NCBI GenBank assembly: GCA_020430865.1
Contig: JAGQIY010000272.1
Span: 1 to 24,783, forward strand
Reading direction: 5' to 3'
DNA length: 24,783 bases
Source: Myxococcales bacterium
Lineage (GTDB): Bacteria; Myxococcota; Polyangia; Polyangiales; Polyangiaceae
The notes beneath the pieces are model-generated. The model saw only the letters and a program-made list of their open reading frames with translations, ran no database searches and had not been told where the DNA came from. Below are positions 2 to 14,923 of this stretch, one piece after another; positions within the stretch are counted from its first letter, which is position 1; each line of letters starts with the position of its first letter. Made by a program: the position numbers and the translations under genes.

Positions 2-1888
2 AACCCGATTCTTGATGCCTCGGGGAAACCATACAAGGTAGTCAAGTATGCCGTGGACGTCACGAAGCAGGTGCAAGAGCGTCGCGAGTCGGCGAAGGTC
101 AAGTCGATCGTCGACAACATGCCGCGTCCAGTGATGATGATCGACCCCAAGACGGCGGAGGTCACTTACGCCAACCAGGCCTCGAAGGACCTGCTCAAGG
201 GCGTCGCCCAGTACCTGCCGATCGATCCCAACCAGATCGTCGGAACGTGCATCGACGTCTTCCACAAGGTGCCGGGTCGCATTCGGGCGATCGTCGAGGA
301 CCCGAGCAAGCTGCCCCACAGCGCGCGCATCCCGATCGGTCCAGAATGGTCGGATCTCAATGTGTTCGGTACGTTCGACAACAACGGCAAGTTTGCTGGG
401 GCGGCCCTTGCCTGGGAACTCGTCACCGACAAGGTGCGCCTCGAGGAGCACGAGAAGGCGGCCAAGCTGGCGGTGGCTCAGGTGCAGGCGGCACTCGGCG
501 AGCTCGCCCAGGGCAACTGGAACGTCGCCATCACCGACACCTTCGAGGGTGACCTCGAAGAGATGAAGCAGAACGTCAACAACATCGCGAGCGTCCTGCA
601 GAGCTTCCTGCACGAGATCGGGACGCTGCTCTCCGCCGCCAAGGATGGTCAGCTGTCGGTGCGGGCGTCGGCCGAAGGCTTCTCGGGCTCGTACCACGAG
701 ATGATCGTGGGAGTGAACCAGATGGTGGAGGCGCTACTCTCCCCCATGAACGCTCTGCAGCGTTCCCTCGGGGCAATGGCGGACGGTGATCTGACGAGCT
801 ATGTCCACGAGGCGTACCGTGGCGATCACGCCGCGCTCAAGGAGGCGCTCAACAACAGCCTGGACGGATTGAACAACCTGCTGTCCCAGGTGTCGGACTC
901 GTCCAACATGATCTCGCGCAGCAGCACCGAGGTCGCGGCTTCGGCGCAGGGCCTGTCTCAAGGCGCCAGCGAGCAGGCGGCGACGGTGGAGGAGATCTCT
1001 TCGCAGATCACCCAGATCACCGAGCAGACCCGACAGAACGCCGAGAACGCGACTCAGGCCAACGCCCTGGCGCGTGCCGCCCGCGACGGTGCCCAGGAAG
1101 GTGACAAGCAGATGACCCAGATGGTGGAAGCCATGGGGGGCATCGAGGAAGCCAGCAACAACATCTCGAAGATCATCAAGGTGATCGACGAGATCGCCTT
1201 CCAGACCAACCTGCTCGCCCTGAACGCGGCTGTCGAAGCGGCGCGCGCGGGAGTCCACGGGCGCGGCTTCGCGGTGGTCGCCGAAGAGGTGCGCAACCTG
1301 GCGGCTCGTAGCGCCAGCGCCGCCAAGGAGACCACGGAGCTCATCGAAGGCTCGATCAAGAAGGTAAGCTCGGGCACCGTGATCGCCAACCAGACGGCCA
1401 CCGCCCTCGCCTCCATCGTGCGAGACGTCGGCAAGGTGAGCGATCTGGTCGCTGAGATCGCCGCGGCGAGCAATGAGCAGGCGGACGCCATCACTCAGGC
1501 GAACGTTGGTCTCGACCAGATCAACGCCGTCACCCAGCGCAACAGCGCGACGGCCGAGGAGAGCGCCGCCGCGTCTCAAGAGATGCTCGGTCAGGTCGAG
1601 AAGATGCAGCAGATGCTCGGCGAGTTCACGCTGGCCAAGGCCAACGCCTCCAAGGGCGGAGAGCTACCCGCGGAGATCACCCCCGAGCTGCTCGAGGCGC
1701 TCAAGGCCTTCATGGCCTCGGGAGGTGGCGGGTTCCAGGCTCAGAAGACCAACGGGTCCAACGGGCATGGCTACGGCCACTCCAGCGGGAGCAACGGCCA
1801 CTCGAACGGGAGCAATGGTCACGGCCGCGCGAACGGGAACGGGGCACCCTCCATCGTCCTCGACGCGAGCGAGTTCGGAAAGTACTGA
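2..1888 (+). CDS. Soluble PAS / poly-HAMP methyl-accepting chemotaxis protein (5' truncated by window)
   Basis: The reading frame is open to the window's left edge. The codons before the GTG at 53 read as the end of a PAS domain ([12 protein letters not shown], then [11 protein letters not shown]), so the gene starts upstream and 53 is not a real start. In visible-fragment numbering there is the tail of one PAS, a second PAS at about 40-145, three HAMP-like segments at about 160-300, and a methyl-accepting signalling domain whose conserved hairpin tip ([17 protein letters not shown]) begins at residue 397. No membrane segment is visible, so this is likely a cytoplasmic receptor that signals through CheA/CheW. 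The C-terminal 50 or so residues form a flexible Gly/Asn/Ser/His-rich tail ending in EFGKY. That ending fits the consensus x-[HFYW]-x-x-[HFYW] of CheR/CheB-tethering pentapeptides. The receptor assignment is firm; the ligand sensed by the PAS domains is unknown. Confidence 0.95.
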
Positions 1889-1913: not shown

Positions 1914-1947
1914 GCAAGCCGCCGCGAGTCTCCCTCCGGCGGCTTGC
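1914..1947 (+). terminator. Perfect 11-bp inverted repeat between receptor gene and cheR
   Basis: GCAAGCCGCCG (1914-1924) is an exact reverse complement of CGGCGGCTTGC (1937-1947), with a 12-nt loop. The hairpin lies 26 bp after the receptor stop and is followed by CCTGTTT, a poor U-tract. It may act as a terminator or partial attenuator that lowers cheR expression relative to the receptor, or as a 3' stabilising hairpin. Termination itself cannot be shown from sequence. Confidence 0.5.
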
Positions 1948-1951
1948 CCTG

Positions 1952-2026
1952 TTTCGCGGAGTTGGGTTTCGCGGAGTTGGGTTTCGCGGAGTTGGGTTGC
2001 GAGGAGCTAGGTTTCAAGGAGCTGGC
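1952..2026 (+). repeat. Five 15-bp tandem repeats in the cheR leader
   Basis: Three identical copies of TTTCGCGGAGTTGGG (1952-1966, 1967-1981, 1982-1996) are followed by two diverged copies (1997-2011 and 2012-2026). Every unit keeps a GGAG core, and the last supplies the cheR ribosome-binding site. The unit is a multiple of three, so the upstream frame stays open and encodes a five-residue repeat if translation starts further upstream. Confidence 0.9.
2016..2021 (+). promoter_or_regulatory. Ribosome-binding site that sets the cheR start
   Basis: AAGGAG lies 6 nt before the ATG at 2028. This is near-ideal spacing and favours that ATG over a TTG at 1944, which would add 28 repetitive residues and sits inside the hairpin stem. 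Confidence 0.75.
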
Positions 2027-2027
2027 G

Positions 2028-2873
2028 ATGGAAGCTGAGCTGAGTGTAGGCGGCCCTGAGTTGGGGCTCGAGGAGTTCCGGTACCTCCAGACGTTCATTC
2101 ACAAGAACTTCGGTATTTCCCTGGCGGACCACAAGCGGGGCATGCTCGCGAGCCGCCTGCGCAAGGTGCTCGATCGGCATCGGCTCGGGTCGTTCCGTGA
2201 GTACGTCGACACACGGCTCAAGCAGCCGACGCCAGACGTGCTCGAGGAACTGATGAACGTCGTCTCGACGAATCACACGTACTTCAACCGCGAGCCCGCG
2301 CACTACGACTTCTTCTCACGGGTGCTGCCTGAGTTGAGCCAGCGAGCTGAGAAGCGAGCGGGTCGCAAGGAGCTCCGGGGCTGGTGCGCGGCCGCGTCCT
2401 ATGGCCACGAGCCCTACACCCTCGCGATGCTGCTGAGAGAACACTTCGGTTCGCGCTATGCGGAGTGGGACGCAGGTCTGCTCGGTACCGATATCTCTGC
2501 CCAGGCGCTGGCGGTCGCCCAGAAGGGTGAATACGCAGACGAGCAAGTCGATGCAATGCCGGCGCACCTGCGAGAACGCTACCTCGAGCGCGTCGGTCGC
2601 GACGTTTGGCGGGTGAAGGAGGCTGTGCGCGGGGACGTACTGTTCAGGCGCTTCAATCTCATGAACGCGATCCCGTTCAAGAAGCCCTTCGACTACGTCT
2701 TCATTCGCAACGTGATGATCTACTTCGATACCGAGACTCGCATCGAGCTCGTGAAGCGCATCGCGCAGTTCATCCACCCTGGGGGGTACCTCGTGGTCGG
2801 ACTCTCCGAGTCGCTACCGCGCGGAATTCCAGGGATCCAGAGCGTCTCTTCGGGCGTGTACCAGCGGAGGTAG
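2028..2873 (+). CDS. cheR: Chemoreceptor glutamate methyltransferase CheR
   Basis: Transfers methyl groups from S-adenosylmethionine to glutamates of the receptor signalling domain. The 281-residue protein has the usual CheR length. It shows the N-terminal helical domain with the TYFNREPAHYDFF segment, an AdoMet-binding motif I of the form WCAAASYGHEPY (more usually WSAGCSTGEEPY), the LGTDIS acidic strand, and the C-terminal IRNVMIYFD motif. The loop of the beta-subdomain (YLERVGRDVWRV) is three residues shorter than the Salmonella CheR loop as I remember it, a feature reported for methyltransferases that do not need a receptor pentapeptide. The start is chosen from the AAGGAG site. The stop is 1 bp before cheB, so the two are almost certainly co-translated. 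Confidence 0.95.
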   Translation: MEAELSVGGPELGLEEFRYLQTFIHKNFGISLADHKRGMLASRLRKVLDRHRLGSFREYVDTRLKQPTPDVLEELMNVVSTNHTYFNREPAHYDFFSRVLPELSQRAEKRAGRKELRGWCAAASYGHEPYTLAMLLREHFGSRYAEWDAGLLGTDISAQALAVAQKGEYADEQVDAMPAHLRERYLERVGRDVWRVKEAVRGDVLFRRFNLMNAIPFKKPFDYVFIRNVMIYFDTETRIELVKRIAQFIHPGGYLVVGLSESLPRGIPGIQSVSSGVYQRR

Positions 2874-2874
2874 T

Positions 2875-3957
2875 GTGAGCAAGATTCGAGTACTTGTCGT
2901 GGACGACTCGGCGTTGATCCGTCAGCTCTTGAGCAGGGGACTGGCGATGGATCCGGAGATCGAGGTCGTCGGGACCGCCAACGATCCTTACGTGGCTCGA
3001 GACCTGATCGTGAAGCTGAACCCCGATGTCTTGACGCTGGACGTCGAGATGCCGCGCATGACGGGAGTCGAGTTTCTCAAGCGCCTGATGCCTCAGCACC
3101 CGATGCCGGTGGTGATGGTGAGTTCGCTCACGAGTCGCTCCGCGGAGACGACCATGGAGGCGCTCTCGGCAGGAGCCGTGGACTTCGTGTTGAAGCCCGC
3201 TGCGAACGTCCACAACGGGGTCGAGCTGCTGCTGACGGAGCTGATCGCGAAGGTGAAAGCAGCCTCACGAGTGTCGGTGAGTCACCTCAGGCGAGACGCC
3301 ACCGCCGTGCGTCAGGTCGTCGTCACCAAAGCGGCTACGCCGATGGCTGCGTCCACTGACAAGATCCTCGCCATCGGCGCGTCCACGGGTGGCACCGAGG
3401 CGGTGCGTGACGTCCTGGTGGGTCTGCCCGTCGATGGTCCTGGCGTCGTCGTGGTCCAGCACATGCCGCCGGTGTTCACGCGTATGTACGCCGAGCGCCT
3501 CGACCGCGAGTGCCCGCTCAGCGTCAAGGAGGCCAAGGACGGTGACCGCGTGATCGCAGGACGGGTGCTCCTCGCTCCGGGTGGGATCCAGTGTCGGGTA
3601 GTGCGCAGCGGTGGCCACTACGTGGTCCGGTGTGAGGGCACGGAGCCTGTCTCCCGCCACTGCCCCTCGGTGGACGTGATGTTCGAGTCCGTGGCCAAGC
3701 ACGCGGGCAAGCACGCAGTCGGTGTGATCCTCACAGGGATGGGGAGTGACGGTGCCGCGGGCATGCTTTCCATGCACAAAACCGGCGCTCACACCATTGC
3801 GCAAGATCAAGACACATGTGTTGTTTATGGAATGCCAAAAGTTGCCGTTGAAATGGGTGGAGTGACGGAAGTCCTGCCACTCCCCAAGATCGCGCAAGCA
3901 GCCGTAGCCGCACTCACCGCGGGGGATAGGCATGTTCGGAAAGTTTCTAATGGATGA
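2875..3957 (+). CDS. cheB: Chemotaxis response-regulator methylesterase/glutaminase CheB
   Basis: Removes receptor methyl groups (and deamidates glutamines) when phosphorylated by CheA. The 360-residue protein has an N-terminal receiver domain with acidic pair D10/D11, phospho-acceptor D56 in DVEMP and K107 in FVLKP. A linker leads to the C-terminal esterase with catalytic triad S170 (GASTGGT), H196 (QHMPP) and D292 (GMGSDGA), each exactly six residues later than in the Salmonella enzyme (S164/H190/D286). Both domains look fully active. It starts at GTG 2875 with AGCGGAGG just upstream. The 3' end overlaps the next gene by 26 bp. Codons 310-329 (3802-3861) have strikingly low third-position GC (4 of 20), unlike the rest of the operon, although they encode the best-conserved stretch of the domain. 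Confidence 0.96.
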   Translation: MSKIRVLVVDDSALIRQLLSRGLAMDPEIEVVGTANDPYVARDLIVKLNPDVLTLDVEMPRMTGVEFLKRLMPQHPMPVVMVSSLTSRSAETTMEALSAGAVDFVLKPAANVHNGVELLLTELIAKVKAASRVSVSHLRRDATAVRQVVVTKAATPMAASTDKILAIGASTGGTEAVRDVLVGLPVDGPGVVVVQHMPPVFTRMYAERLDRECPLSVKEAKDGDRVIAGRVLLAPGGIQCRVVRSGGHYVVRCEGTEPVSRHCPSVDVMFESVAKHAGKHAVGVILTGMGSDGAAGMLSMHKTGAHTIAQDQDTCVVYGMPKVAVEMGGVTEVLPLPKIAQAAVAALTAGDRHVRKVSNG

Positions 3958-4393
3958 AGGCGTGGCGACGGCAGAGCAGATAGTCGCCGCTCTGGACGAG
4001 CAACTCGCTCGCACGCCGCAGTTCGGCAAACTGGCGCTCTCTCAGAAGGTGCTGAGCGTCCCGCAGATCTGGAGGATCTTGAATCGTCAGGCCGATCACG
4101 GCGGGCGGTTCGGGGAGATCGCCGTCCAGCTGGGCTACCTCGAGGAGGAGCAGGTTCAGCGCCTTCTCGTCATCCAGCTCCAGTCGCGTCCCAAGCTGGG
4201 CGAGCTACTGGTGGAGGCAGGCGTGGTTTCCCCCACCCAGCTCGAGGGTCTGCTGGAGAAGTACCACATCCATCGTTTGACCGACGAACTCGGCCCCGTT
4301 CCGGAGGCCGAGTCAGACGAGTGGCCCGACGATGCCCACAGCCACGCACGCATCGTCTCTGCTCCCCCCGCCAAGCGCGGCGTTGGTGGCTGA
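3932..4393 (+). CDS. Small protein of four MshEN-like 24-residue repeats (possible c-di-GMP-binding chemotaxis adaptor)
   Basis: The 153-residue soluble protein has residues 1-111 built from four 24-residue repeats (1-24, 30-53, 59-82, 88-111) separated by exactly five residues each. G3, Q16 and L21 are kept in all four, Q24 in three, G10 in three, and residue 2 is F/F/F/L. This matches the spacing of the MshEN domain (the GspE/PilB N-terminal family), in which two 24-residue motifs with a 5-residue spacer bind cyclic di-GMP. Position 1, normally Arg, is M, Q, R and K, so ligand binding is uncertain. The 42-residue C-terminal tail is acidic, then proline/alanine-rich. No ATPase domain follows, unlike GspE. 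The start at 3932 puts M1 at repeat position 1; an ATG at 3950 with GGAAAG upstream is an alternative. Its place between cheB and cheD suggests a chemosensory role, which is inference. Confidence 0.85.
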   Translation: MFGKFLMDEGVATAEQIVAALDEQLARTPQFGKLALSQKVLSVPQIWRILNRQADHGGRFGEIAVQLGYLEEEQVQRLLVIQLQSRPKLGELLVEAGVVSPTQLEGLLEKYHIHRLTDELGPVPEAESDEWPDDAHSHARIVSAPPAKRGVGG

Positions 4394-4422: not shown

Positions 4423-4908
4423 GTGAGCGCAGCACAACAGATGAAGGCCCACCAACTCGTCGTGCGGGTGGGGGAGCTCCGCGTGGGTCAGGCTGACGAT
4501 GTGATCGTGACCTACGGGCTGGGGAGTGGAGTCGCCCTCGTGCTCTACGATCCAGCCCTGCGTATCGGCGGCGTGCTCCACGCCATGTTGTCCGGTCCCG
4601 GCTCCAGCGACAGTCCAGGGAAGTTCGTCGACGCTGGAGCAGACGCCCTGCTCAAGGAGTTCTACTCCGCGGGCACGGTGCGCTCCCGCCTCGTCGCAGT
4701 GGTGGCGGGCGGCGCGTCGCCTGGCGGCGCGTTCATTCAGACGGGCAGCCGAAACCTGACTGTGCTGAAGAAGGTGCTGTGGAAGCACGGCATCTCCCCC
4801 AGGGCGAACGACGTCGGGGGCAAGTCCGTGCGCACCGTGACGCTCGAGTGCGACAGTGGTCGTTGCGTGACCTCATCTCGCGACTCACGCCTGGTGCTGA
4901 TGCCCTGA
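4423..4908 (+). CDS. cheD: CheD-family protein lacking the catalytic cysteine
   Basis: CheD normally deamidates receptor glutamines and, in many bacteria, partners with CheC or the receptors. This 161-residue protein has the family length and fold signature, with VTYGLGSGVALVLYDP followed by GGVLHAML. The Thr (T30) and His (H53) sit at the spacing of the Thermotoga maritima Thr21-Cys27-His44 site, but the Cys position is Gly36 (codon GGA at 4528-4530). Deamidase activity should therefore be lost, and the protein is probably a binding or regulatory relative. It starts at GTG 4423 with TTGAGGAAA upstream and follows the repeat protein by 29 bp, probably as the last gene of the operon. The family assignment is confident; its job is not. 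Confidence 0.9.
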   Translation: MSAAQQMKAHQLVVRVGELRVGQADDVIVTYGLGSGVALVLYDPALRIGGVLHAMLSGPGSSDSPGKFVDAGADALLKEFYSAGTVRSRLVAVVAGGASPGGAFIQTGSRNLTVLKKVLWKHGISPRANDVGGKSVRTVTLECDSGRCVTSSRDSRLVLMP

Positions 4909-5027: not shown

Positions 5028-5144
5028 TCAGCGGTTCGAGTCGACGCGATTGCGACGGCCGCGATTCTTCGCCTTGTTCTTGGCGTTCTTGCGGTTGCAG
5101 CGCTTGCGGTCGGTCTTGCGGGGCTTCTTCGTGAACAAGTACAT
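5028..5144 (-). CDS. Possible 38-residue, very basic small protein
   Basis: On the - strand an ATG at 5144 opens a 38-codon frame ending at TGA (5028-5030). The product has 8 Lys and 9 Arg against 2 Asp (net about +15), one Cys and six Asn. 35 of 38 codons end in G or C, which matches genuine genes in this window and is the main support. Against it, no clear ribosome-binding site precedes the ATG, and the frame is open further upstream with GTG and TTG codons. The composition resembles small ribosomal or nucleic-acid-binding proteins, but I do not recognise the family. It lies between cheD and mglA, on the same strand as mglA, beyond a hairpin. Confidence 0.35.
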   Translation of the reverse strand: MYLFTKKPRKTDRKRCNRKNAKNKAKNRGRRNRVDSNR

Positions 5145-5304
5145 GGGGTCGGGAGGGCTACGCTCGAACCGCACCGCGTTCAAGCAATTTCGCGCTCCGT
5201 GGGACGAGATGGGTCAGCGCTTCCCTCTCCCCCAAAAATCCTCGAACGGCGGCACGCTGGTAAATCTGCGAGATCGCGCGGTTTTCGTCGAGTGGGCAAG
5301 CGAA

Positions 5305-5395: not shown

Positions 5396-5983
5396 TCAGC
5401 CGCCGCGCTTGAGCTCGGTGAGGACGAGCTTCGACACCGCCTTCAGCGTGTCGAAGACACCGACGCCCGTACGCGCCACGGCTTCGTAGTCCGGGACGTT
5501 CATCGGGTTGATCAGCGAGCGGAGTTCTTCCACTTCGACGGCGTTGGGAAGGTCTCGCTTGTTGTACTGGATGACGTACGGGATCTTCTCCAGGGAGTAC
5601 CCCTGCTCTGCGAGGTTCGTACGCAGGTTGTCGACGCTCTCCTGGTTTGCCTCCAGGCGCTCGATCTGGGAGTCGGCCACGAAGATCACGCCGTCGACCC
5701 CCTTCAGAATCAGCTTGCGGCTCGCGTCGTAGAAGACCTGGCCAGGGACCGTGTACAGATGGAAGCGAGTCTTGAAGCCACGGATCTCACCGAGGGACAG
5801 CGGCAAGAAGTCGAAGAAGAGCGTTCGCTCGGTCTCCGTCGCGAGGCTGATCATCTTGCCCTTCGCGTCGGGATTGGTGCGCTCGTAGATGTACTGGAGA
5901 TTGGTCGTCTTTCCGCAGAGACCAGGCCCGTAGTAGACGATCTTGCAGTTGATCTCCCGAGCCATGTAGTTGATGAAGCTCAT
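5396..5983 (-). CDS. mglA: MglA, small Ras-like GTPase controlling cell polarity and gliding
   Basis: The 195-residue protein has the length of Myxococcus xanthus MglA and is close to it throughout. MglA-GTP marks the leading pole and drives both gliding and type IV pilus motility and their reversals. Visible motifs are the P-loop GPGLCGKTT (19-27), the MglA-type switch II TVPGQ (78-82) with Thr78 in place of the usual Asp, R53 and Q82 (reported to act in GTP hydrolysis), and NKRD (141-144) for guanine recognition. The C terminus [10 protein letters not shown] is conserved. Translation starts at ATG 5983 after GAGGAAA. It lies 184 bp downstream of mglB on the same strand, the same order as the M. 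xanthus mglBA operon. Polarity switching in Myxococcus is set by Frz chemosensory signalling; any link to the nearby che genes here is inference. Confidence 0.97.
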
Positions 5984-6167
5984 CGCAGTTTCCTCACCCT
6001 GTGAGTTCCCGAGCTGGCTTTGGGTGGTGCAGCGGCCTGGCCCGAGAGCTCAGGTTCAGTCGATTGGGGCTCCAGCCGGGCAAGCCCAGCACCAATACTT
6101 CTGATCGATTCGTTGCACGCGTGGATGCTGCCATCGACTCGGTTCATCGACCCTCGCACTCAGTTGC

Positions 6168-6650
6168 TTAGTCGTTGAACAGGTTGTCGATGTCTTCGTC
6201 GGTGATCTCCGCGAAGGGCGAGTCGCCCCCGGGCTCCTGAACCTTGCTCAGGAGCGCCTCGAAGATCCGATTGAGCTCGTCGCTGGCCTTGCGGACGCGT
6301 AGACGCACCAACCCCAAGCTGGACTTGGAGTCGAAGATCACCACCAGGATGACTCGATTGCCAACCAGCTGGATGTGGATGTTCGCGTTCTCACCTTCGT
6401 GGAACTGGGTCGCGAACTCGTTTTCCCGTAGCAGCTTGGCGATGCCGCCGGTTGCGGCGATGTTGCCGGCAGTGAGTGACGCCAGCGACGTCGTGTCGAT
6501 GTTGTCGACCTCACCGCTTGCCGCGATGAGCTGACCATTCTTGTCGACGATGAAGACGACCTTGGCGTTCGCTTCCCGAACCAGACGATCGACGACCGCC
6601 TGGATCTGATTGAACTCCTCCTCGTACATCACCATCTGAGGGTTGACCAT
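6168..6650 (-). CDS. mglB: MglB, Roadblock/LC7 GTPase-activating protein for MglA
   Basis: The 160-residue protein has the Roadblock/LC7 fold and is close to M. xanthus MglB, including VMYEEEF near the N terminus, VDKNGQLIAASG, the NIDTTSLASLTAGN segment, NQFHEG-like ATQFHEG, and SLGLVRLRVRKASDEL. MglB dimers bind MglA and stimulate GTP hydrolysis, and they mark the lagging pole. The C-terminal helix SPFAEITDEDIDNLF is the region known to contact MglA and is retained. Translation starts at ATG 6650, five bases after GGAGG. It is transcribed first, with mglA 184 bp downstream, an unusually long gap for co-translated partners. Upstream is the large divergent intergenic region. Confidence 0.97.
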   Translation of the reverse strand: MVNPQMVMYEEEFNQIQAVVDRLVREANAKVVFIVDKNGQLIAASGEVDNIDTTSLASLTAGNIAATGGIAKLLRENEFATQFHEGENANIHIQLVGNRVILVVIFDSKSSLGLVRLRVRKASDELNRIFEALLSKVQEPGGDSPFAEITDEDIDNLFND

Positions 6651-7175: not shown

Positions 7176-7427
7176 CGAGGACCACTCGAGGGACCGGGTC
7201 GTGCCGGAAGCCCTGCGAGGCCGGTTCTCCCAGGGCTCGGCCAGTCAGGCTCGGTGGCGGCTGCGGTCTCTGTCCGGAGCGACGCGTCCTACCCCCACGG
7301 TTGCCCGAGAGCCCCACGAGGTCCGATCGCGGTGAATTTCGCCGGTGAGCGTTCCCAGGCAGTGACGCGTTCGCGCTCGAGCCGTCGTGGATCGACATCA
7401 CCCAGGGACGGGAGTAGGACGCTGGAC

Positions 7428-10400
7428 GTGAAGCATCGCCACCCTCTCACCGGTGTGTGCCAGAGCACCGCGCACGCCGGAAATCATCCTCATGGCCTGC
7501 CCCGTATCGCGCTGCTCGTCGGCACCTTGGCGCTGACGCTCTTCAGCGGCGGTTCCGCCAGCGCAGAGTGGTTCCACCCCGACCTAGAGCGAGGCGCGAG
7601 CGAGGTGGAACGCGCCAGGGGGCCGGAGGGTTACGCAGCCTTGCGTCGCGTTTGGTCCACCTGGGATCGCGCCAACCCAGATCAGGTCGAGCAGGTGCTG
7701 CGTCTGGCCTCCGAGAACCCGAAGCTCTCTCCGTCGGTGCGGGCATATGCCGGGATGCTGGTGGCCTACGCGCGGGGACGTCGTGGCGACCTGACCGCCA
7801 ATCGCAGGCAGCTGCGTCACCTGGGGTTCATCGACCGCTGGCTCGTGGTCGGGCCCTTCGACAACGAGGGCAAATCTGGCCTCGCGCAGGCTTTCCAGCC
7901 GGAAACGGAGTTCGCGTCCGAGATCGTTCTCGGTCGCGCGTACAGCGGGAAGGAGCGACCGGTGCGCTGGCGGGAGGCGCCCAACGTGTTCTCCTACGGA
8001 TTCGTCGACCTGGGTTCCTTGGTGCGGCCCGAGCAGAAGGTTTGCGGATACCTGACGACGTTCGTGAAGAGCAAGGCCGGAAAGCCCAAGAACGTCTCGG
8101 CGTGGGTGGGCGCGAGCGGCGCGTTCAAGCTCTTCTGGAACGGTCGCCAGGTGCTGGAAGACACGGCATATCGTGGCCATGACGCCGAGCGCTTTGCCAC
8201 GCGAGTCAAGCTCGAGAGTGGCTACAACAACCTGACCATCAAGGTCTGCGGCGAGGCAAGCGCACCAGCCGCGACGGTTCGCCTCGCCGATGCCGCAGGG
8301 AAGCCAGACGAAGACCTGGAGTTCTCCAATTCGGTCGAACACAGCAAGCTGGCCATCAAGAACGCAGCCAAGAAGGTGGAGGTCGTCGCGCCGACGGGTG
8401 TGCAGGGCGCCGTGCAAGCGTTCGAGAAGAGCGTCGAGGGCAAGAAGCCATCCGCCGCAGCTCTCTACGCCTACGCGGACTACCTGGTCGAGACTGGCGG
8501 CGACGACCCCAAGGAGCACTGGGCGAGGGACTACGCGAAGCGCGCGGCCGATCAGGAGCCCACGGTGAAGCGCTTGCTCCTGGCGGGCGATCTTTCCGAA
8601 GACCGCAACAAGTACGCGGCGTGGGTCAAGAAGGCCGAGGCCCTGGCCAAGCCAGACGACGTTCAGGTGCTCCTGGCGCGGGCGCGCCTGGCGCGGAGCA
8701 GCCCGGCGTGGCGCGACGCGATCCCGTTCTATGACAAGGTGCTGGCTCTGGATCCGGACAACCTCGAAGGTATCGAGGGGCGGGTCGAGCTCTACAACGA
8801 AGCCGGACTGCGTCGAACGGCGCTGGAAGCGCTCGAGCGCGCGGTGCTGAAGAACCCCGAGTCGGTGACGCTCCTGAACATGTACGCCTCGCAGCTGCGC
8901 GCGCTGGGCCGATCCACGGAGGCCGAGGAAGTGGAGAGCCGCTACGCGGCGCGGCGCTTCGACGACCGCAGCTACCTGAGTCAGAAGATCGATCTGGCGG
9001 TCGCGCGCCGGAACTCGAAGGCCGCGCAACACTGGACGTCGCGGCTCCTCGAGGCCGACGGCGACAGCCTCTGGGCCTACGCCGTGAGTGCACAGACTCA
9101 GCGCATGCTGGGTCAGCCCCAGCGCGCCATCGCGGAGTACAAGCGCGGCCTGGAGCTCACGCCGGAGGATGTGGGCATGCTCCGTTCAATCGCAGACCTC
9201 CACGCCGAGACTGGCGATCGTGAGGAGCAGCTCGCGCTGCTCAGGCAGATCCTGCAGATCCGTCCCCAAGAGCAAGACGTACGCCAGTACGTCGAGCACA
9301 TCGAGCCACCCAAGCCCCGCTCCGACGAGGCCTATGCCTGGGCGTCTGAACGTTTCCTCAAGGATCGACTGGCCAAGGCCAATGGTCAGAACAAGCGCAC
9401 CTTGGTGGACCTGACGGTCACCACCGTCTACGAGAACGGACTCAGCAGTCAGTTCCGGCAAGTCGTCTTCCAACCCCTGACTGACTCCGCGGCCGCTACC
9501 TCACGGCAGTATGGCTTCGCCTACCAGGCGGACAGCCAGCGGGTTCAGCTGCGCGGCGCGCGGGTCTACCGGGCGGACGGAAGTATCGACGAAGCGATCG
9601 AGAGCGGGGAGGCGGCCGCGGACAACCCTGGCATCGCCATGTACACCTCGAGCCGCACCTACTACGTTCAGTTCCCGCGGCTGGAGCCTGGCGACGTGGT
9701 CGAGCTTCGCTACCGCATCGATGACGTCACTCCGATCAACGAGTTTGCCGACTACTTCGGCGCGGTCGAGTACCTGCAGTCGAGCGAGCCAGTGGGCCAC
9801 GCCGAGTACGTGCTGATCGCGCCCAAGAAGCGCAAGCTGTACATCGACACGGTGCGCTTGCCCGGCCTGAAGAAGAGTCAGGAGACCAAGGGAGACAACA
9901 CGGTCTACCGCTTCGCGATGGACAAGGTTCCGCCGATCGTGCCCGAGCCAGCGATGCCGCCCTGGCCAGAGGTGCTCGGCTTCGTCCACGTCTCGACGTT
10001 CAAGGACTACAAGGCGATGGGCACCTGGTACTGGGGGCTCGCGAAGGACCAGTTCGATCTGGATGACGAGACGCGAAAGCTCGTGCGGGACATCACCAAG
10101 GGCAAGCAGACGACCCTGGAGAAGGTCAAGGCGGTCTACGGCTGGGTGATCGAGAACACCCGCTACGTGGCGCTCGAGTTCGGCATCTACGGCTTCAAGC
10201 CGAGGCGCTGCGTGCAGACGGTGGCCCGTGGCTGGGGAGACTGCAAGGACAAGGCGACGGTGATCGTGTCGATGCTCAAGGAGCTCGGGATCGACTCCAC
10301 CATCGTCATCTTGCGGACGGGGTTGCGTGGGGATTTCGACTCGAAGGTCGCCAGCCTGGCGCCCTTCGACCACGCCATCGCGTACGTTCCGGAGCTCGAC

Positions 10401-11168
10401 CTCTACCTGGATGGTACGGCAGAGTACACCGGCAGCACCGAGCTACCGGCGATGGACCTGGGCGCCCTCGGTTTGTTGGTGAACCAGGGTGACAGCAGGC
10501 TCGTCCACCTGCCGGAGATCGACCCAAAGACCGCGGTGGACACCCGTGACGTCACCGCGGCGGTGGCGCCGGACGGGTCCGCGAAGCTCGAGCTCTCCTA
10601 CGAGACGCGCGGGACCGGAGCCTCCTCCTGGCGCCGGCGCTACCATGCGGAAGCGACCCGCCGCGCGCGCGTGCAGCGCGATCTGGGACAGGAGTTCCCC
10701 GGGATCGAGATCGACGATGGCAAGGACGGCATCGTGACGAACGATCTCGAGGACGTAGAGCAGCCCGTGAGCATGAAGATCAAGGGCAAGGCGCCGAGCT
10801 TCGCGCGCCTCGAGGGCAAGCGTCTGAGCATGGCGGTTACCAGCAACTACCGGCTCACTCCGAGCTTTGCCTCGCTGTCGTCGCGCAAGCTCGACGTGCA
10901 GTTGCCCGCTCTCGGCACGACCAAGAACACCTTCAAGGTCAAGCTGCCTGCGGGGATGAAGGTGGCGGCGCTGCCCGCGGCTGGCGGAGGCAAGTCGAAG
11001 TTCGGTAGCTGGGAGATTCAGGTGCAGCAAACCAAGGGCGAGGTGACGGTGACCAGTACGCTCGTCGTCACTGCCTCCCGCGTGAAGAGCAGCGAGTACT
11101 CAGAGTGGAAGAAGTTCTGTACGCAAGTCGACAGCGCGTTCGCGCAGCGATTGGTGGTGGAGAAATGA
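7428..11168 (+). CDS. Exported TPR / DUF3857 / transglutaminase-like protein with intact catalytic triad
   Basis: The protein has about 1246 residues. A type I signal peptide (hydrophobic core RIALLVGTLALTLFS, cleavage likely after ASA at residue 46) sends it across the inner membrane. In order it has an N-terminal helical part, a beta-rich segment at about 140-300 (begins DRWLVVGPFDNEG), TPR-like repeats at about 425-620, DUF3857 at about 665-806, and a transglutaminase-like domain at about 850-1000 with C939 (GWGDCKDK), H982 (FDHAIAY) and D995 (LYLDGT). A beta-rich C-terminal part follows. The triad looks active, so it may be a protease or crosslinking enzyme of the envelope; the substrate is unknown. 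The start is uncertain: GTG 7428 fits the signal peptide and has AGGAC upstream; GTG 7455 is an alternative, and frames from 7254 add an implausible leader. The stop overlaps the next ATG (ATGA). Confidence 0.88.
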   Translation: MKHRHPLTGVCQSTAHAGNHPHGLPRIALLVGTLALTLFSGGSASAEWFHPDLERGASEVERARGPEGYAALRRVWSTWDRANPDQVEQVLRLASENPKLSPSVRAYAGMLVAYARGRRGDLTANRRQLRHLGFIDRWLVVGPFDNEGKSGLAQAFQPETEFASEIVLGRAYSGKERPVRWREAPNVFSYGFVDLGSLVRPEQKVCGYLTTFVKSKAGKPKNVSAWVGASGAFKLFWNGRQVLEDTAYRGHDAERFATRVKLESGYNNLTIKVCGEASAPAATVRLADAAGKPDEDLEFSNSVEHSKLAIKNAAKKVEVVAPTGVQGAVQAFEKSVEGKKPSAAALYAYADYLVETGGDDPKEHWARDYAKRAADQEPTVKRLLLAGDLSEDRNKYAAWVKKAEALAKPDDVQVLLARARLARSSPAWRDAIPFYDKVLALDPDNLEGIEGRVELYNEAGLRRTALEALERAVLKNPESVTLLNMYASQLRALGRSTEAEEVESRYAARRFDDRSYLSQKIDLAVARRNSKAAQHWTSRLLEADGDSLWAYAVSAQTQRMLGQPQRAIAEYKRGLELTPEDVGMLRSIADLHAETGDREEQLALLRQILQIRPQEQDVRQYVEHIEPPKPRSDEAYAWASERFLKDRLAKANGQNKRTLVDLTVTTVYENGLSSQFRQVVFQPLTDSAAATSRQYGFAYQADSQRVQLRGARVYRADGSIDEAIESGEAAADNPGIAMYTSSRTYYVQFPRLEPGDVVELRYRIDDVTPINEFADYFGAVEYLQSSEPVGHAEYVLIAPKKRKLYIDTVRLPGLKKSQETKGDNTVYRFAMDKVPPIVPEPAMPPWPEVLGFVHVSTFKDYKAMGTWYWGLAKDQFDLDDETRKLVRDITKGKQTTLEKVKAVYGWVIENTRYVALEFGIYGFKPRRCVQTVARGWGDCKDKATVIVSMLKELGIDSTIVILRTGLRGDFDSKVASLAPFDHAIAYVPELDLYLDGTAEYTGSTELPAMDLGALGLLVNQGDSRLVHLPEIDPKTAVDTRDVTAAVAPDGSAKLELSYETRGTGASSWRRRYHAEATRRARVQRDLGQEFPGIEIDDGKDGIVTNDLEDVEQPVSMKIKGKAPSFARLEGKRLSMAVTSNYRLTPSFASLSSRKLDVQLPALGTTKNTFKVKLPAGMKVAALPAAGGGKSKFGSWEIQVQQTKGEVTVTSTLVVTASRVKSSEYSEWKKFCTQVDSAFAQRLVVEK

Positions 11169-14100
11169 GCGCGCGACTGGCTCTCGTCGCTTGCCTGTGC
11201 GGGCTCGCAGCGGTCGGCTGTGGTCACTCGCAGCGTGGCGCGAACTCGAGCCTGGACGAGCTGCGGAAGCTCGGACCCTCGACCAGCGACCCGGGGGTTG
11301 CCGAGCGGTGGTTCTCCGCGGAACTCGTATCTCCAGGCGGAGATCCCGCCAGAGCGCAGAAGGCGCGGGAGGTACTGGACAAGCTGAAGGTCGGATCCGC
11401 GCGCGCGCACCTGCTCCGGGGGCTCGACGACGTCCACCACGGCCACATGCGCAGTGCGTCCGAGCACTACCTCGCGAGTCTGCAGGCTGCTCGCAAGGAG
11501 AACGCGCCCGAGTCCCCGCTGATCGCCTGGTACGCGGCCAACGAAGGCCTTGGTTTTCGGCACCTGGCGGGGCGCGATCTGTGGGCAGACCACCGGCAAG
11601 CGGTGACCACCACCATCGACACACCCGGCTTCATCGGCTGGCGCGCGCGCGCCGAGCTGGTCGACTGGCTCACGGACGAGGCTTGGGCAAGCGCGGACTC
11701 CAACGTCGAGGAGCTCACCCGCAAGCAGTTCGGCTGCATCGGCAACGTGCGGATGGCGGGTCCGTTTGGTCGCCGCGCCGCTTCGGACACCATCCGGCAC
11801 TACCCCGCGGAGAAGCCGGGGCCGTGGCCGCTGTCCTGGGATTCGGTCCCGGGGACCTCGGTGAAGCCCAGGCAACTCAAGGTCGAGACCCGGGGATGCA
11901 ATGTCGCCGTGGATGAACCGGTGTACTCCGGTATTTTCTACGGGGAAACGTTCCTGGACCTGCCTGCCGCCAAGAACCTGATCCTGGTGGTCCAGGGGGC
12001 GGTGGCGATGTGGGTCGATGACGTGCAGGTGTTGGAGCGTGACCCCCGAGAGTGGGGGGCATGGCCTCGCTTCGGCGCGGCGCTCCGCCTGGAGGCTGGA
12101 AGGCACCGGGTGCTGGCGCGGCTCACCGACGGCTACACGTCGGTGCGTGTCCTGGAGCTCGACGGTCGCCCCGCACAGGTGAAGACCTCGAGTGACGCCA
12201 GCGCGCCCTACGCCATCGTGCCGCCGCAACAGCTGGCGGACCCCAACGCGTTGATGCCCTTCGTGCAGGCTGCGCGCACGGGCAAGGGTGCGGAGGGACA
12301 CGATGATTTGCTGCGCCTGATCGCCGCCGAGCTCGCCCACGTCGAGGGCCAGGACGACGTGGCGAGCGTGCTGATCCAACCGCTGGTCAAGCAACCCACC
12401 AAGGCCACCGGCGTGGCGCTGGCGACCGCGGCGGTCTTCGCCGCGGACGACCCGGTGTACGACGAATCCAAGGGGGACGACCTCGTGCGCAGCCTGCAGG
12501 AAGCTGCCACCAGGCGAGACCAGAGGCTCTGGGCTCCGCGCATGGCGCTCATCCTGCGGGACGCGAGCACCAAGGGCCTGACGGAAGCGGTCAAGCCGCT
12601 CAAGGCCTTGGCCGCGGAGTTTCCCGAGGTGCCGGGCATCCTGAGCACGCTGGCGTCCCTGTACGGACAGCTGGGCTGGGGCCCTGAGCGCTTGCAGACG
12701 GTCCTGGAGCTCGGAAAGCGTTTCCCGAGGGATCCGGAGACGCTCGAAGTGGTCGCGGCGACGTACGACGATCGCGGAGACTTCGCCAAGTCGGACGAGC
12801 TGGTGAAGCGCATCCTGGAGCTCTCGCCCGACAGCGAGGTCCGCCTGGACCGCGCCCTGGCGCGGCAGGACTACGACGCTGCGCTCGCCGAGCTGAAGCG
12901 CCTCGGCAAGCGTCGTCCCGATCGCAAGGACATCGCGGCTCGTATCGAGGACGTCCTGGTGCGCGCTGGCAACACCGCCGAGACCTGGAAGAAGCTCGAA
13001 GCGGCAATCAAGAAGGAGCCGAAGAGCGGTCGCGCGCGCCTGGAGCTCGCCGACGCCCAGTTTGCGAGTGGAAAGCACGGCGCGCTGCGCAAGGCGCTGA
13101 TCGAGGCGATCGAAGCGGGCGCGGACTACAGCGACATCGCCGACGCCATCGACCTGATCGAGGGCGTCACCGAGCTCGAGCCCTACCGCATCGACGGGCT
13201 GAAGGTGATCAAGGACTACGAGGCGAGCGGTGAGGAGATGGACGGCACCGCGGCGCGCATCCTCGACTACTCGGCGGTGGCTGTGCGAGGCGATGCCTCG
13301 AGCCGCATGTTGAGCCACGAGGTGGTACGCATCCAGAGTCCTGAAGCGATCGGACAGTTTGCCGAGCAGCGCCCCCCCGAGGGCATGGTGCTGCACATGC
13401 GGGTGATCAAGCAGGATGGCAGCATCCTCGAGCCCGAGTTCGTGGCAGGCAAACCGACCGTCACCATGCCGCACCTCGAGGTGGGCGACTACATCGAGAC
13501 CGAGAACATCGTCTCTCGCTACGGCGACGGCCAGAGTGGGCGCGCCTACTACGGGCCTCGCTGGTTTTTCCGAGAGGAAAATATCGCCTACTGGCGGAGC
13601 CAGTTCGTGCTCATCTCGCCCAGCGACAAGGACCTGGTGATCGAGACACGGGGCAACGTGCCGCCGCCGGCGATCGAGAAGGACACGGGGCGTGAGGTAC
13701 GCACCTGGCTGGTCAACAAGAGCCCAGCGGCTCCGGTCGAGCCACTGAGCGCGCCGGTCTCCGAGTTCCTGCCTTCGGTTCACGTCGGCTGGGGGGTCAG
13801 CCTTCAGGATCGGTTGCGCAACCTCAACGACTCCGCAATCGACTTGACCCCGATGGACCCGCGCATCAAGGCCATCGCCGCGAACGTCGTTGGCTCGACC
13901 CGGGCGTCCAGTGAGCAGGTGAAGAAGCTCTACCACTGGGTGATCGCCAACATCGAGGAGGGCGACGAGAGCGACGGACGGCGCGTCATCGTGGGCAAGC
14001 AGGGAAACCGCTGGAAGGCGTTCATCCTGCTCTGTCAGGCACGAGGCATCCCCGCGAAGTACGTGGTCGCCAAGAGCCGCATCACCACCCCAAGCATTGG

Positions 14101-14923
14101 CCCGCTCTCCGAGGCGAGTGACTTCACGACCGCGGTGCTGCGAGTGCAGCCTGCCAAGCAGCAAGACGTGTGGCTCACGCTCGACAGCAAATACACGCCC
14201 TTCGGCTACATCCCCGACTCCGTGCGCGGCATGCCCGGCTACGAGCTGGGTGGAGACTCTCCCGCCAAGGTCGAGCTCCCGAAGGAAGGCGTCCTCGACC
14301 TGATCGAGCACCTCGGGACCGTGAAGCTCGAGAAGAACGGGTCGGCGACCTTGCAGCTCACCCAGCGCTACCACGGCAAGTATGCCGTCGGCTTGCGCGC
14401 CGGGCTGGCCCAGGTACCGGAGGCCCAGCTCAAGGACATCATCGAGTCCAAGTTGCTCGGGAAGGAGCTTCGCGGGGCGCGCTTGATCAAGTTCGAGCTC
14501 AAGCACCTCGATGAAGTAGATTTCCCCTTGGAAATGGTGTTGACGGCGGAGATGAGCGTCTTCGCTCAGCTCTCTGCTGGTGCGTTGGTCATCGATCCTC
14601 CGTTCTCTCCGCGCGTGGCCCAGCTCGCCGCCCTGCCGACGCGGCAGACGCCGCTCTTCTTTGGTGACGCGACTCACATCAAGAGCGAGCTAGCGATTCA
14701 GCTGCCCGAGGGCATGCACGTCGATGGCCAGTTGCCGAAGTTCGATGGCAGCTTCCAGCAGCACCACGGTCGCGTGAGCGACTCGATGGAAGGTTCGACC
14801 TTGAAGCTCTCGCGCGAACTCTACCTGGCCTCTGGTCGGGTTCAGCCGCCGGAGTACTCCAAGTTTCAGGGCTTCGTGCGCCAGCTGGACAACGCCCTGA
14901 ACAGCTCGATTCGGGTGCGCTGA
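11165..14923 (+). CDS. Predicted lipoprotein paralogue: TPR / DUF3857 / catalytically dead transglutaminase-like
   Basis: The 1252-residue protein has the same domain order as the preceding gene: a beta-rich segment at about 190-340 (begins VRMAGPFG), TPR-like repeats at about 460-640, DUF3857 at about 700-845, a transglutaminase-like domain at about 910-1025, and a beta-rich end. The N terminus MSARLALVACLCGLAAVGCG is a lipoprotein signal with likely lipidated Cys19. In the transglutaminase region the GDCKDKA motif is replaced by QGNRWKA and the DHA motif by DFT, so catalytic Cys and His are missing; only the Asp (LTLDSK) remains. It is probably a structural or regulatory partner of the upstream enzyme-like paralogue. 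The start at 11165 overlaps the upstream stop as ATGA with GGAG before it, indicating translational coupling; a frame open from 11105 is not needed. Confidence 0.88.
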   Translation: MSARLALVACLCGLAAVGCGHSQRGANSSLDELRKLGPSTSDPGVAERWFSAELVSPGGDPARAQKAREVLDKLKVGSARAHLLRGLDDVHHGHMRSASEHYLASLQAARKENAPESPLIAWYAANEGLGFRHLAGRDLWADHRQAVTTTIDTPGFIGWRARAELVDWLTDEAWASADSNVEELTRKQFGCIGNVRMAGPFGRRAASDTIRHYPAEKPGPWPLSWDSVPGTSVKPRQLKVETRGCNVAVDEPVYSGIFYGETFLDLPAAKNLILVVQGAVAMWVDDVQVLERDPREWGAWPRFGAALRLEAGRHRVLARLTDGYTSVRVLELDGRPAQVKTSSDASAPYAIVPPQQLADPNALMPFVQAARTGKGAEGHDDLLRLIAAELAHVEGQDDVASVLIQPLVKQPTKATGVALATAAVFAADDPVYDESKGDDLVRSLQEAATRRDQRLWAPRMALILRDASTKGLTEAVKPLKALAAEFPEVPGILSTLASLYGQLGWGPERLQTVLELGKRFPRDPETLEVVAATYDDRGDFAKSDELVKRILELSPDSEVRLDRALARQDYDAALAELKRLGKRRPDRKDIAARIEDVLVRAGNTAETWKKLEAAIKKEPKSGRARLELADAQFASGKHGALRKALIEAIEAGADYSDIADAIDLIEGVTELEPYRIDGLKVIKDYEASGEEMDGTAARILDYSAVAVRGDASSRMLSHEVVRIQSPEAIGQFAEQRPPEGMVLHMRVIKQDGSILEPEFVAGKPTVTMPHLEVGDYIETENIVSRYGDGQSGRAYYGPRWFFREENIAYWRSQFVLISPSDKDLVIETRGNVPPPAIEKDTGREVRTWLVNKSPAAPVEPLSAPVSEFLPSVHVGWGVSLQDRLRNLNDSAIDLTPMDPRIKAIAANVVGSTRASSEQVKKLYHWVIANIEEGDESDGRRVIVGKQGNRWKAFILLCQARGIPAKYVVAKSRITTPSIGPLSEASDFTTAVLRVQPAKQQDVWLTLDSKYTPFGYIPDSVRGMPGYELGGDSPAKVELPKEGVLDLIEHLGTVKLEKNGSATLQLTQRYHGKYAVGLRAGLAQVPEAQLKDIIESKLLGKELRGARLIKFELKHLDEVDFPLEMVLTAEMSVFAQLSAGALVIDPPFSPRVAQLAALPTRQTPLFFGDATHIKSELAIQLPEGMHVDGQLPKFDGSFQQHHGRVSDSMEGSTLKLSRELYLASGRVQPPEYSKFQGFVRQLDNALNSSIRVR

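What the first reader, a model, noticed from the sequence alone, without database searches (positions are those of the whole stretch)
3932..4393. Stand-alone protein of four MshEN-like repeats inside a chemotaxis operon
Residues 1-111 are four 24-residue repeats with exactly 5-residue spacers (24-5-24-5-24-5-24). G3, Q16 and L21 are invariant, and Q24 is present in three of four. The MshEN cyclic-di-GMP receptor domain is two 24-residue motifs with a 5-residue spacer, normally fused to secretion or pilus ATPases. Here two such units form a free protein between cheB and cheD. It could be an adaptor that feeds cyclic di-GMP levels into receptor adaptation. Position 1, normally Arg, is conserved only in repeat 3, so binding may be confined to one unit or lost.
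Basis: partly seen in the sequence, partly recalled or inferred. Interest (0 to 1): 0.75.

Follow-up and report, generated by a model that had tools for sequence, protein, structure and literature searches.

The report
Four-repeat cyclic-di-GMP-receptor-like chemotaxis protein
A small protein built from four copies of a known cyclic-di-GMP-binding motif is encoded inside a chemotaxis gene cluster of a bacterium related to myxobacteria, and relatives of it recur beside chemotaxis genes in several other genomes, which suggests that the signal molecule cyclic di-GMP is wired directly into chemotaxis there.

Summary
ORF 3932-4393 (+), 153 aa, overlaps cheB by 26 nt and has four 24-residue MshEN motifs with 5-residue spacers (z 11.7). 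NCBIfam NF053729 (c-di-GMP_motif) matches at 82 bits, cut-off 38. AlphaFold gives eight confident helices in register with the repeats.

The interpretation needs correction. (1) The canonical MshEN_N bundle is the central pair, repeats 2+3: 9 of 10 MshE/PilF/PilB rows align there, as do all 10 for a second homologue, and Gly3 and Gln24 are kept in repeats 2 and 3 of 8 of 8 chemotaxis-linked copies. Sequence-profile scores favour 3+4 instead. (2) Lack of Arg at position 1 does not imply lost binding (PMC11731258). (3) Relatives sit beside cheA, cheB or an MCP gene in seven other genomes, but 21 of 27 stand-alone copies surveyed do not.

Best reading: a c-di-GMP-responsive adaptor of chemosensory arrays, working like the PilZ adaptor MapZ. 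Binding and partner are untested. New variant of a known kind.

The parts
3932..4393 (+). gene for the four-repeat MshEN-like protein (153 aa), overlapping cheB by 26 nt
   Evidence: NCBIfam NF053729 82 bits vs cut-off 38; AF2 pLDDT per 10-residue block 91-98 over residues 1-110
3921..3925 (+). GGGGG ribosome-binding-like stretch ending six bases before the ATG, also present in L001
   Evidence: sequence only
3932..4003 (+). repeat 1 (residues 1-24), outer repeat, partly degenerate in the family
4019..4090 (+). repeat 2 (residues 30-53), inner repeat, first half of the predicted c-di-GMP site
   Evidence: MshE/PilF chains align to about residues 28-85; G32 and Q53 near-invariant
4106..4177 (+). 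repeat 3 (residues 59-82), inner repeat, second half of the predicted c-di-GMP site
   Evidence: F60, G61, Q82 near-invariant, R59 commonest residue
4193..4264 (+). repeat 4 (residues 88-111), outer repeat ending in an aromatic residue instead of Gln
   Evidence: position 24 is F/Y/W in 25 of 29 rows of the signature set that have a letter there, Gln in 2 of 29
4289..4324 (+). conserved acidic tail block (residues 120-131, LGPVPEAESDEW), mostly predicted disordered; candidate docking peptide (inference)
   Evidence: 8 of 12 columns invariant in six close sequences, one of them 99% identical to the window's; pLDDT under 50 from residue 126
53..1888 (+). chemoreceptor gene (PAS, HAMP_2, MCP signalling domain)
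   Evidence: Pfam
1944..2873 (+). cheR (the true start is probably a later ATG, near 2025; inference)
   Evidence: Pfam
2875..3957 (+). cheB (receiver + methylesterase)
   Evidence: Pfam
4423..4908 (+). cheD-like gene with Gly in place of the Cys of the GLGSC motif
   Evidence: Pfam; alignment to 2f9z

Best explanation
It is a stand-alone receptor-like protein of four MshEN_N motifs (a 'tetra-MshEN' module). Its two inner repeats form one canonical MshEN_N four-helix bundle that most likely binds one c-di-GMP; the outer repeats 1 and 4 flank it, and a conserved acidic tail may dock to a partner. In chemotaxis clusters it most likely works as a c-di-GMP-dependent adaptor: ligand binding changes how it engages the chemosensory core (CheA/CheW/receptor) or the adaptation enzymes, so that cellular c-di-GMP biases kinase output or adaptation. 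Shown by computation: repeats, family match, predicted fold, conserved inner pair, linkage to che genes. Inferred: ligand binding, partner and direction of the effect.
Confidence: 0.55

Rival explanations
1. It keeps the MshEN fold but no longer binds c-di-GMP; it serves as a ligand-free scaffold or adaptor in the chemosensory complex.
For: Outer repeats degenerate; Gln30 and Lys39 in repeat 2; non-binding MshEN relatives exist (Xanthomonas XpsE, PMC5013675 section 12).
Against: The contact residues (G3, hydrophobic 2/17/21, Q24) of repeats 2+3 are kept in nearly all copies while the outer repeats drift; XpsE has lost several of exactly these residues.
Confidence: 0.2
2. Two separate MshEN_N units (repeats 1+2 and 3+4), each binding c-di-GMP.
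For: NF053729 scores piece 3+4 highest in the window protein and its best stretch is 59-110; tandem (MshEN_N)2 proteins are known (PMC5013675 section 12).
Against: 9 of 10 MshE/PilF/PilB rows in one model and 10 of 10 in the other align best to repeats 2+3; repeat 4 lacks Gln24 in 8 of 8 linked copies and repeat 1 lacks Gly3 or Gln24 in some.
Confidence: 0.15
3. A general c-di-GMP effector that happens to lie near che genes, with a target elsewhere (type IV pili, secretion or transcription).
For: 21 of 27 stand-alone copies surveyed are not near the che genes searched, for example beside sulfatase and HAD genes (L084) or EAL-HDOD and MotB-like genes (L087).
Against: Linkage far above random placement; operon overlaps with cheA and cheB; the che label is spread over the tree (four changes in 59 rows; a single origin is not excluded).
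Confidence: 0.1

Closest known systems
MshEN_N domain of V. cholerae MshE (5HTL; PMC5013675)
   Same: 24-5-24 motif pair; predicted four-helix bundle of repeats 2+3 at 1.2 A over 58 residues; same contact residues
   Different: no ATPase and no MshEN_C subdomain; four motifs; Ala instead of a large aliphatic at position 6 of the inner repeats; aromatic in place of the last Gln
Thermus PilF GSPII-B and GSPII-C (PMC11731258, passages)
   Same: MshEN-like binding without Arg at position 1; GSPII-C has three motifs; PilF is the best PDB sequence hit (6f8l)
   Different: part of a pilus ATPase; other context
MapZ, PilZ adaptor that with c-di-GMP inhibits CheR1 in P. aeruginosa (PMC6370697, passages)
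   Same: proposed role: small stand-alone c-di-GMP adaptor acting on chemotaxis
   Different: PilZ domain, a different fold family; partner known (CheR1), here unknown
MshEN proteins associated with CheX and CheA, mentioned by Wang et al. 2016 (PMC5013675 section 12)
   Same: MshEN joined to chemotaxis signalling; a four-repeat CheX fusion was also found here (L041)
   Different: here a free protein in the che cluster

Membership tests
NCBIfam NF053729 c-di-GMP_motif (MshE-related) | score over the curated cut-off of 38 bits | tested here: met
   82 bits, E 1.8e-23
MshEN_N | two 24-residue motifs with a 5-residue spacer | tested here: met
   four motifs, three 5-residue spacers
MshEN_N | four-helix bundle fold | tested here: met
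MshEN_N | contact residues G3, hydrophobic 2/17/21 and Q24 in both motifs of a pair | tested here: met
   met by repeats 2+3, also by 1+2 in this one protein; repeats 3+4 lack the second Gln
MshEN_N | R/K/L at position 1 of each motif (extended consensus of PMC11731258) | tested here: not met
   repeat 1 Met, repeat 2 Gln, repeat 3 Arg, repeat 4 Lys; the position is tolerant (Pro in one motif of GSPII-C)
MshEN_N | binds c-di-GMP | not testable with these tools
   needs purified protein
full MshEN / GspE N-terminal domain with C-terminal subdomain and T2SS/T4P ATPase | MshEN_C subdomain and ATPase in the same protein | tested here: not met
   153 aa; eight helices and a disordered tail; Pfam scan at E up to 10 lists only DUF4388 and FumaraseC_C, both below their cut-offs
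DUF4388 (Pfam PF14332) | score over the gathering cut-off of 25 bits | tested here: not met
   23.2 bits over 43-112
MapZ-type chemotaxis adaptor (function, not homology) | ligand-dependent contact with a Che protein | not testable with these tools
   only gene linkage is shown

The most novel reading that the evidence does not exclude
A previously undescribed class of chemotaxis components, found here in Myxococcota: free tetra-MshEN proteins whose central repeat pair binds one c-di-GMP and whose outer repeats and tail dock on the CheA/receptor array or on CheB, giving a direct second-messenger input to chemotaxis that arose independently of the PilZ adaptor MapZ.
Probability: 0.4. Interest if true: 0.7.

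Novelty: new variant of a known kind. Interest (0 to 1): 0.5.

Why it matters
How c-di-GMP talks to chemotaxis is known in few cases, mostly through PilZ proteins (from general knowledge). A small, free MshEN protein inside che operons would be a second route and an easy biochemical target: one predicted site, two glutamines to change and a short list of partners. The inner-pair/outer-pair signature also warns that longer MshEN arrays should not simply be counted off in consecutive pairs.

Tried and rejected

Limits: the che-linkage statistic uses 27 stand-alone loci that I chose from the hit lists by a short open frame or an obvious start codon just before repeat 1; the zinc-ribbon-like form G085, ambiguous G306, two hits with an internal stop (G320, G326) and partial hits (for example G390:C37, G404:C160, G444:C71, G162:C15) were left out. 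In one search (66 of 377 genomes matched at E <= 1e-9) only 10 candidates per genome were scored, so misses are likely. Expected values assume random placement; many contigs are short. Genes matching only the receiver part of CheB (L046 at about 1.6 kb; L051 and L087 at about 5 kb) were not counted as che genes. G084 lies beside an MCP gene only and is not among the 5 counted; G454 came later and is not in the 27. The 5-of-5 statement for holds at E <= 1e-11; weaker stand-alone copies in genomes (for example G139, E 3e-9) are not linked. The non-redundant set of 42 comes from 63 distinct rows, 5 dropped for incomplete repeats and 16 as over 60% identical, and was aligned to a profile that includes the window protein.

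Full report
Observation. The ORF at 3932-4393 encodes 153 residues in four 24-residue repeats with exact 5-residue spacers. The 29-residue period scores 177 against a shuffle mean of -125 (0 of 20,000). G3, Q16 and L21 are invariant, Q24 occurs in three of four. The gene starts inside the end of cheB (26-nt overlap), and the start codon with its G-rich upstream stretch is kept in the nearest relative with known context, L001, from a Polyangia bin. Upstream lie MCP, cheR and cheB, downstream a cheD-like gene, then mglA- and mglB-like genes on the other strand. In L001 the order cheB - this gene - mglA - mglB is kept but there is no cheD.

Family. NCBIfam NF053729 ('c-di-GMP_motif', MshE-related) matches at 82 bits, cut-off 38. 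phmmer against the PDB puts Thermus PilF (6f8l, 1.3e-9) and V. cholerae MshE (5htl, 2e-4) first. Pfam lists only two sub-threshold matches. Database search finds five close relatives and, with a profile, 63 proteins, some named as planctomycete.

Which repeats bind. In MshEN the ligand contacts are position 1 (stacking), position 2 with 17/21 of the partner motif, the amides of 3 and 4, and Gln24 (PMC5013675 section 6). Over 52 aligned proteins G3 is kept in 51/51 and 51/52 rows of repeats 2 and 3 but in 24/47 and 21/51 of repeats 1 and 4; Q24 in 51/52 and 50/52 against 29/51 and 2/47. Reduced to 29 non-redundant rows the picture holds, and position 6 is Ala in 27/29 and 29/29 of repeats 2 and 3 but Leu in 26/29 and 25/28 of repeats 1 and 4. 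In a second set of 42 non-redundant rows from whole genomes, 33 show this Leu-Ala-Ala-Leu-like pattern, and the last position of repeat 4 is aromatic in 25 of the 29 of these that have a letter there. The outer-repeat difference is weaker in this set: within the 33, G3 is kept in 25/29, 31/33, 30/33 and 26/33 of repeats 1-4, Q24 in 21/33, 30/33, 33/33 and 2/29. So the module has an inner pair and an outer pair. NF053729 scores of cut pieces disagree: 29.9 (1+2), 38.4 (2+3), 45.3 (3+4). The worry about missing Arg is met by Thermus PilF: GSPII-B has Lys and Leu at position 1 and binds at 6 nM, GSPII-C has Pro in one motif and also binds, and changing both Gln residues abolishes binding in GSPII-B (PMC11731258, passages).

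Genome context. In 144 relatives of the L001 genome 55 match at E <= 1e-3, many of them in longer proteins: the four-repeat unit precedes a CheX domain (L041 over the Pfam cut-off, L038 below it) or an HDOD domain (L039), or follows a weak DnaJ-like segment (L048, L052, below cut-off) or a cysteine-rich, zinc-ribbon-like segment (L035, no Pfam match). Chemotaxis-linked stand-alone copies, eight with the window: window and G001 (overlap cheB); G110 (convergent with cheB; cheD, cheA, cheW and MCP in the same stretch); G084 (followed by an MCP gene); G048 (divergent from cheA of a cluster with MCP, cheR, cheD and cheB); G212 (divergent from cheA; cheW, cheR, cheB; a receiver-only gene follows); G232 (10-nt overlap with cheA, stop included); G454 (MCP, cheW, this gene, CheA-like gene with ATGA overlap; the contig ends after its Hpt domain). 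Of 27 stand-alone loci, 5 lie within 2 kb of a CheB or CheW-domain gene; 0.09 would be expected at random (positions). In the order-level search 10 of 183 genomes match at E <= 1e-11; five hits are stand-alone (open frame under 200) and all five lie beside che or MCP genes. Twenty-one of the 27 show none of the che genes searched, so the module also serves elsewhere. The tree of 59 rows does not resolve whether the link arose once.

All eight linked copies keep G3, a small residue at 6, hydrophobic 2 and 21, and Q24 in repeats 2 and 3; repeat 4 never has Q24; in G454 both outer repeats have lost G3 and Q24 while the inner pair is intact. The six linked genomes searched (not G454) carry 10-22 GGDEF, 3-5 flagellin-domain and 7-13 T2SSE-type ATPase matches each, so enzymes for the ligand and motility genes are present.

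Mechanism. The best reading is a c-di-GMP-responsive adaptor of the chemosensory system. MapZ, a PilZ adaptor, is a precedent in function: with c-di-GMP it inhibits CheR1 (PMC6370697, passages). Which Che protein is contacted is open: cheA is the nearest che gene in four of eight linked loci, cheB in three, an MCP gene in one. The close orthologues share a conserved acidic tail block (residues 120-131), mostly predicted disordered, that could dock a partner (inference). The cheD-like neighbour has Gly in place of Cys in the GLGSC motif, while the CheD or CheR-CheD proteins of L033, L036 and L097 keep the Cys; the catalytic role of that Cys is recalled, not from a call.

Prior knowledge. Wang et al. 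2016 already list MshEN associated with CheA and CheX and note a (MshEN_N)2 form (PMC5013675 sections 12 and 13 part 1); its supplements were not looked at (cap of zero). Papers holding both 'MshEN' and 'CheB': five; three are unrelated by title and in the other two 'MshEN' stands only in the reference list. 'MshEN' with 'Polyangi': none. 'MshEN' with 'c-di-GMP' and 'chemotaxis': 34 papers, 25 listed, of which I looked into five (PMC5013675, PMC12943098, PMC8316039, PMC5812497, PMC7288161). No description of a free MshEN protein in a che operon was found in these searches of one open-access library.

Noticed in passing
window 4423-4908: The CheD-like protein has GLGSG where T. maritima CheD (2f9z) has GLGSC, so the presumed catalytic Cys is lost; L001 has no cheD at the same place.
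   Followed up: partly
window 1951-2025: Five copies of a 15-bp tandem repeat at the start of the mechanical cheR ORF, translated as repeated FAELG-like units; the true cheR start is probably a later ATG.
   Followed up: no
window 5028-5183 (-): A 51-aa basic ORF (with MYLFTKKPRKTDR inside) lies in a 169-nt stretch that is 89% identical to L001 between this gene and mglA; no Pfam match.
   Followed up: partly
window 5396-6650 (-): mglA- and mglB-like genes lie tail-to-tail with the chemotaxis cluster, as in L001 (MglA 98% identical); a link between this che cluster and polarity control is untested. A more distant stand-alone copy (L087) also has mglB-mglA about 3 kb away.
   Followed up: partly
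window 7254-11168 and 11105-14923: Two adjacent, overlapping, very large proteins with TPRs, DUF3857 and a transglutaminase-like core (the second below the Pfam cut-offs for the last two), both conserved in L001 and detectably similar to each other.
   Followed up: partly
L105:5581-9309: G454 cluster with a protoglobin-MCP, a CheW-CZB protein, the four-repeat protein and a CheA-like gene cut by the contig end: possibly a gas-sensing chemosensory cluster with an MshEN component.
   Followed up: no
L038, L040-L042, L045, L047: Frequent four-repeat MshEN proteins of about 290-320 aa; the C-terminal region is CheX by Pfam in L041 (over the cut-off) and weakly in L038, the others were not scanned; L041, L042 and L044 have MCP and receiver-like genes next to them.
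   Followed up: partly
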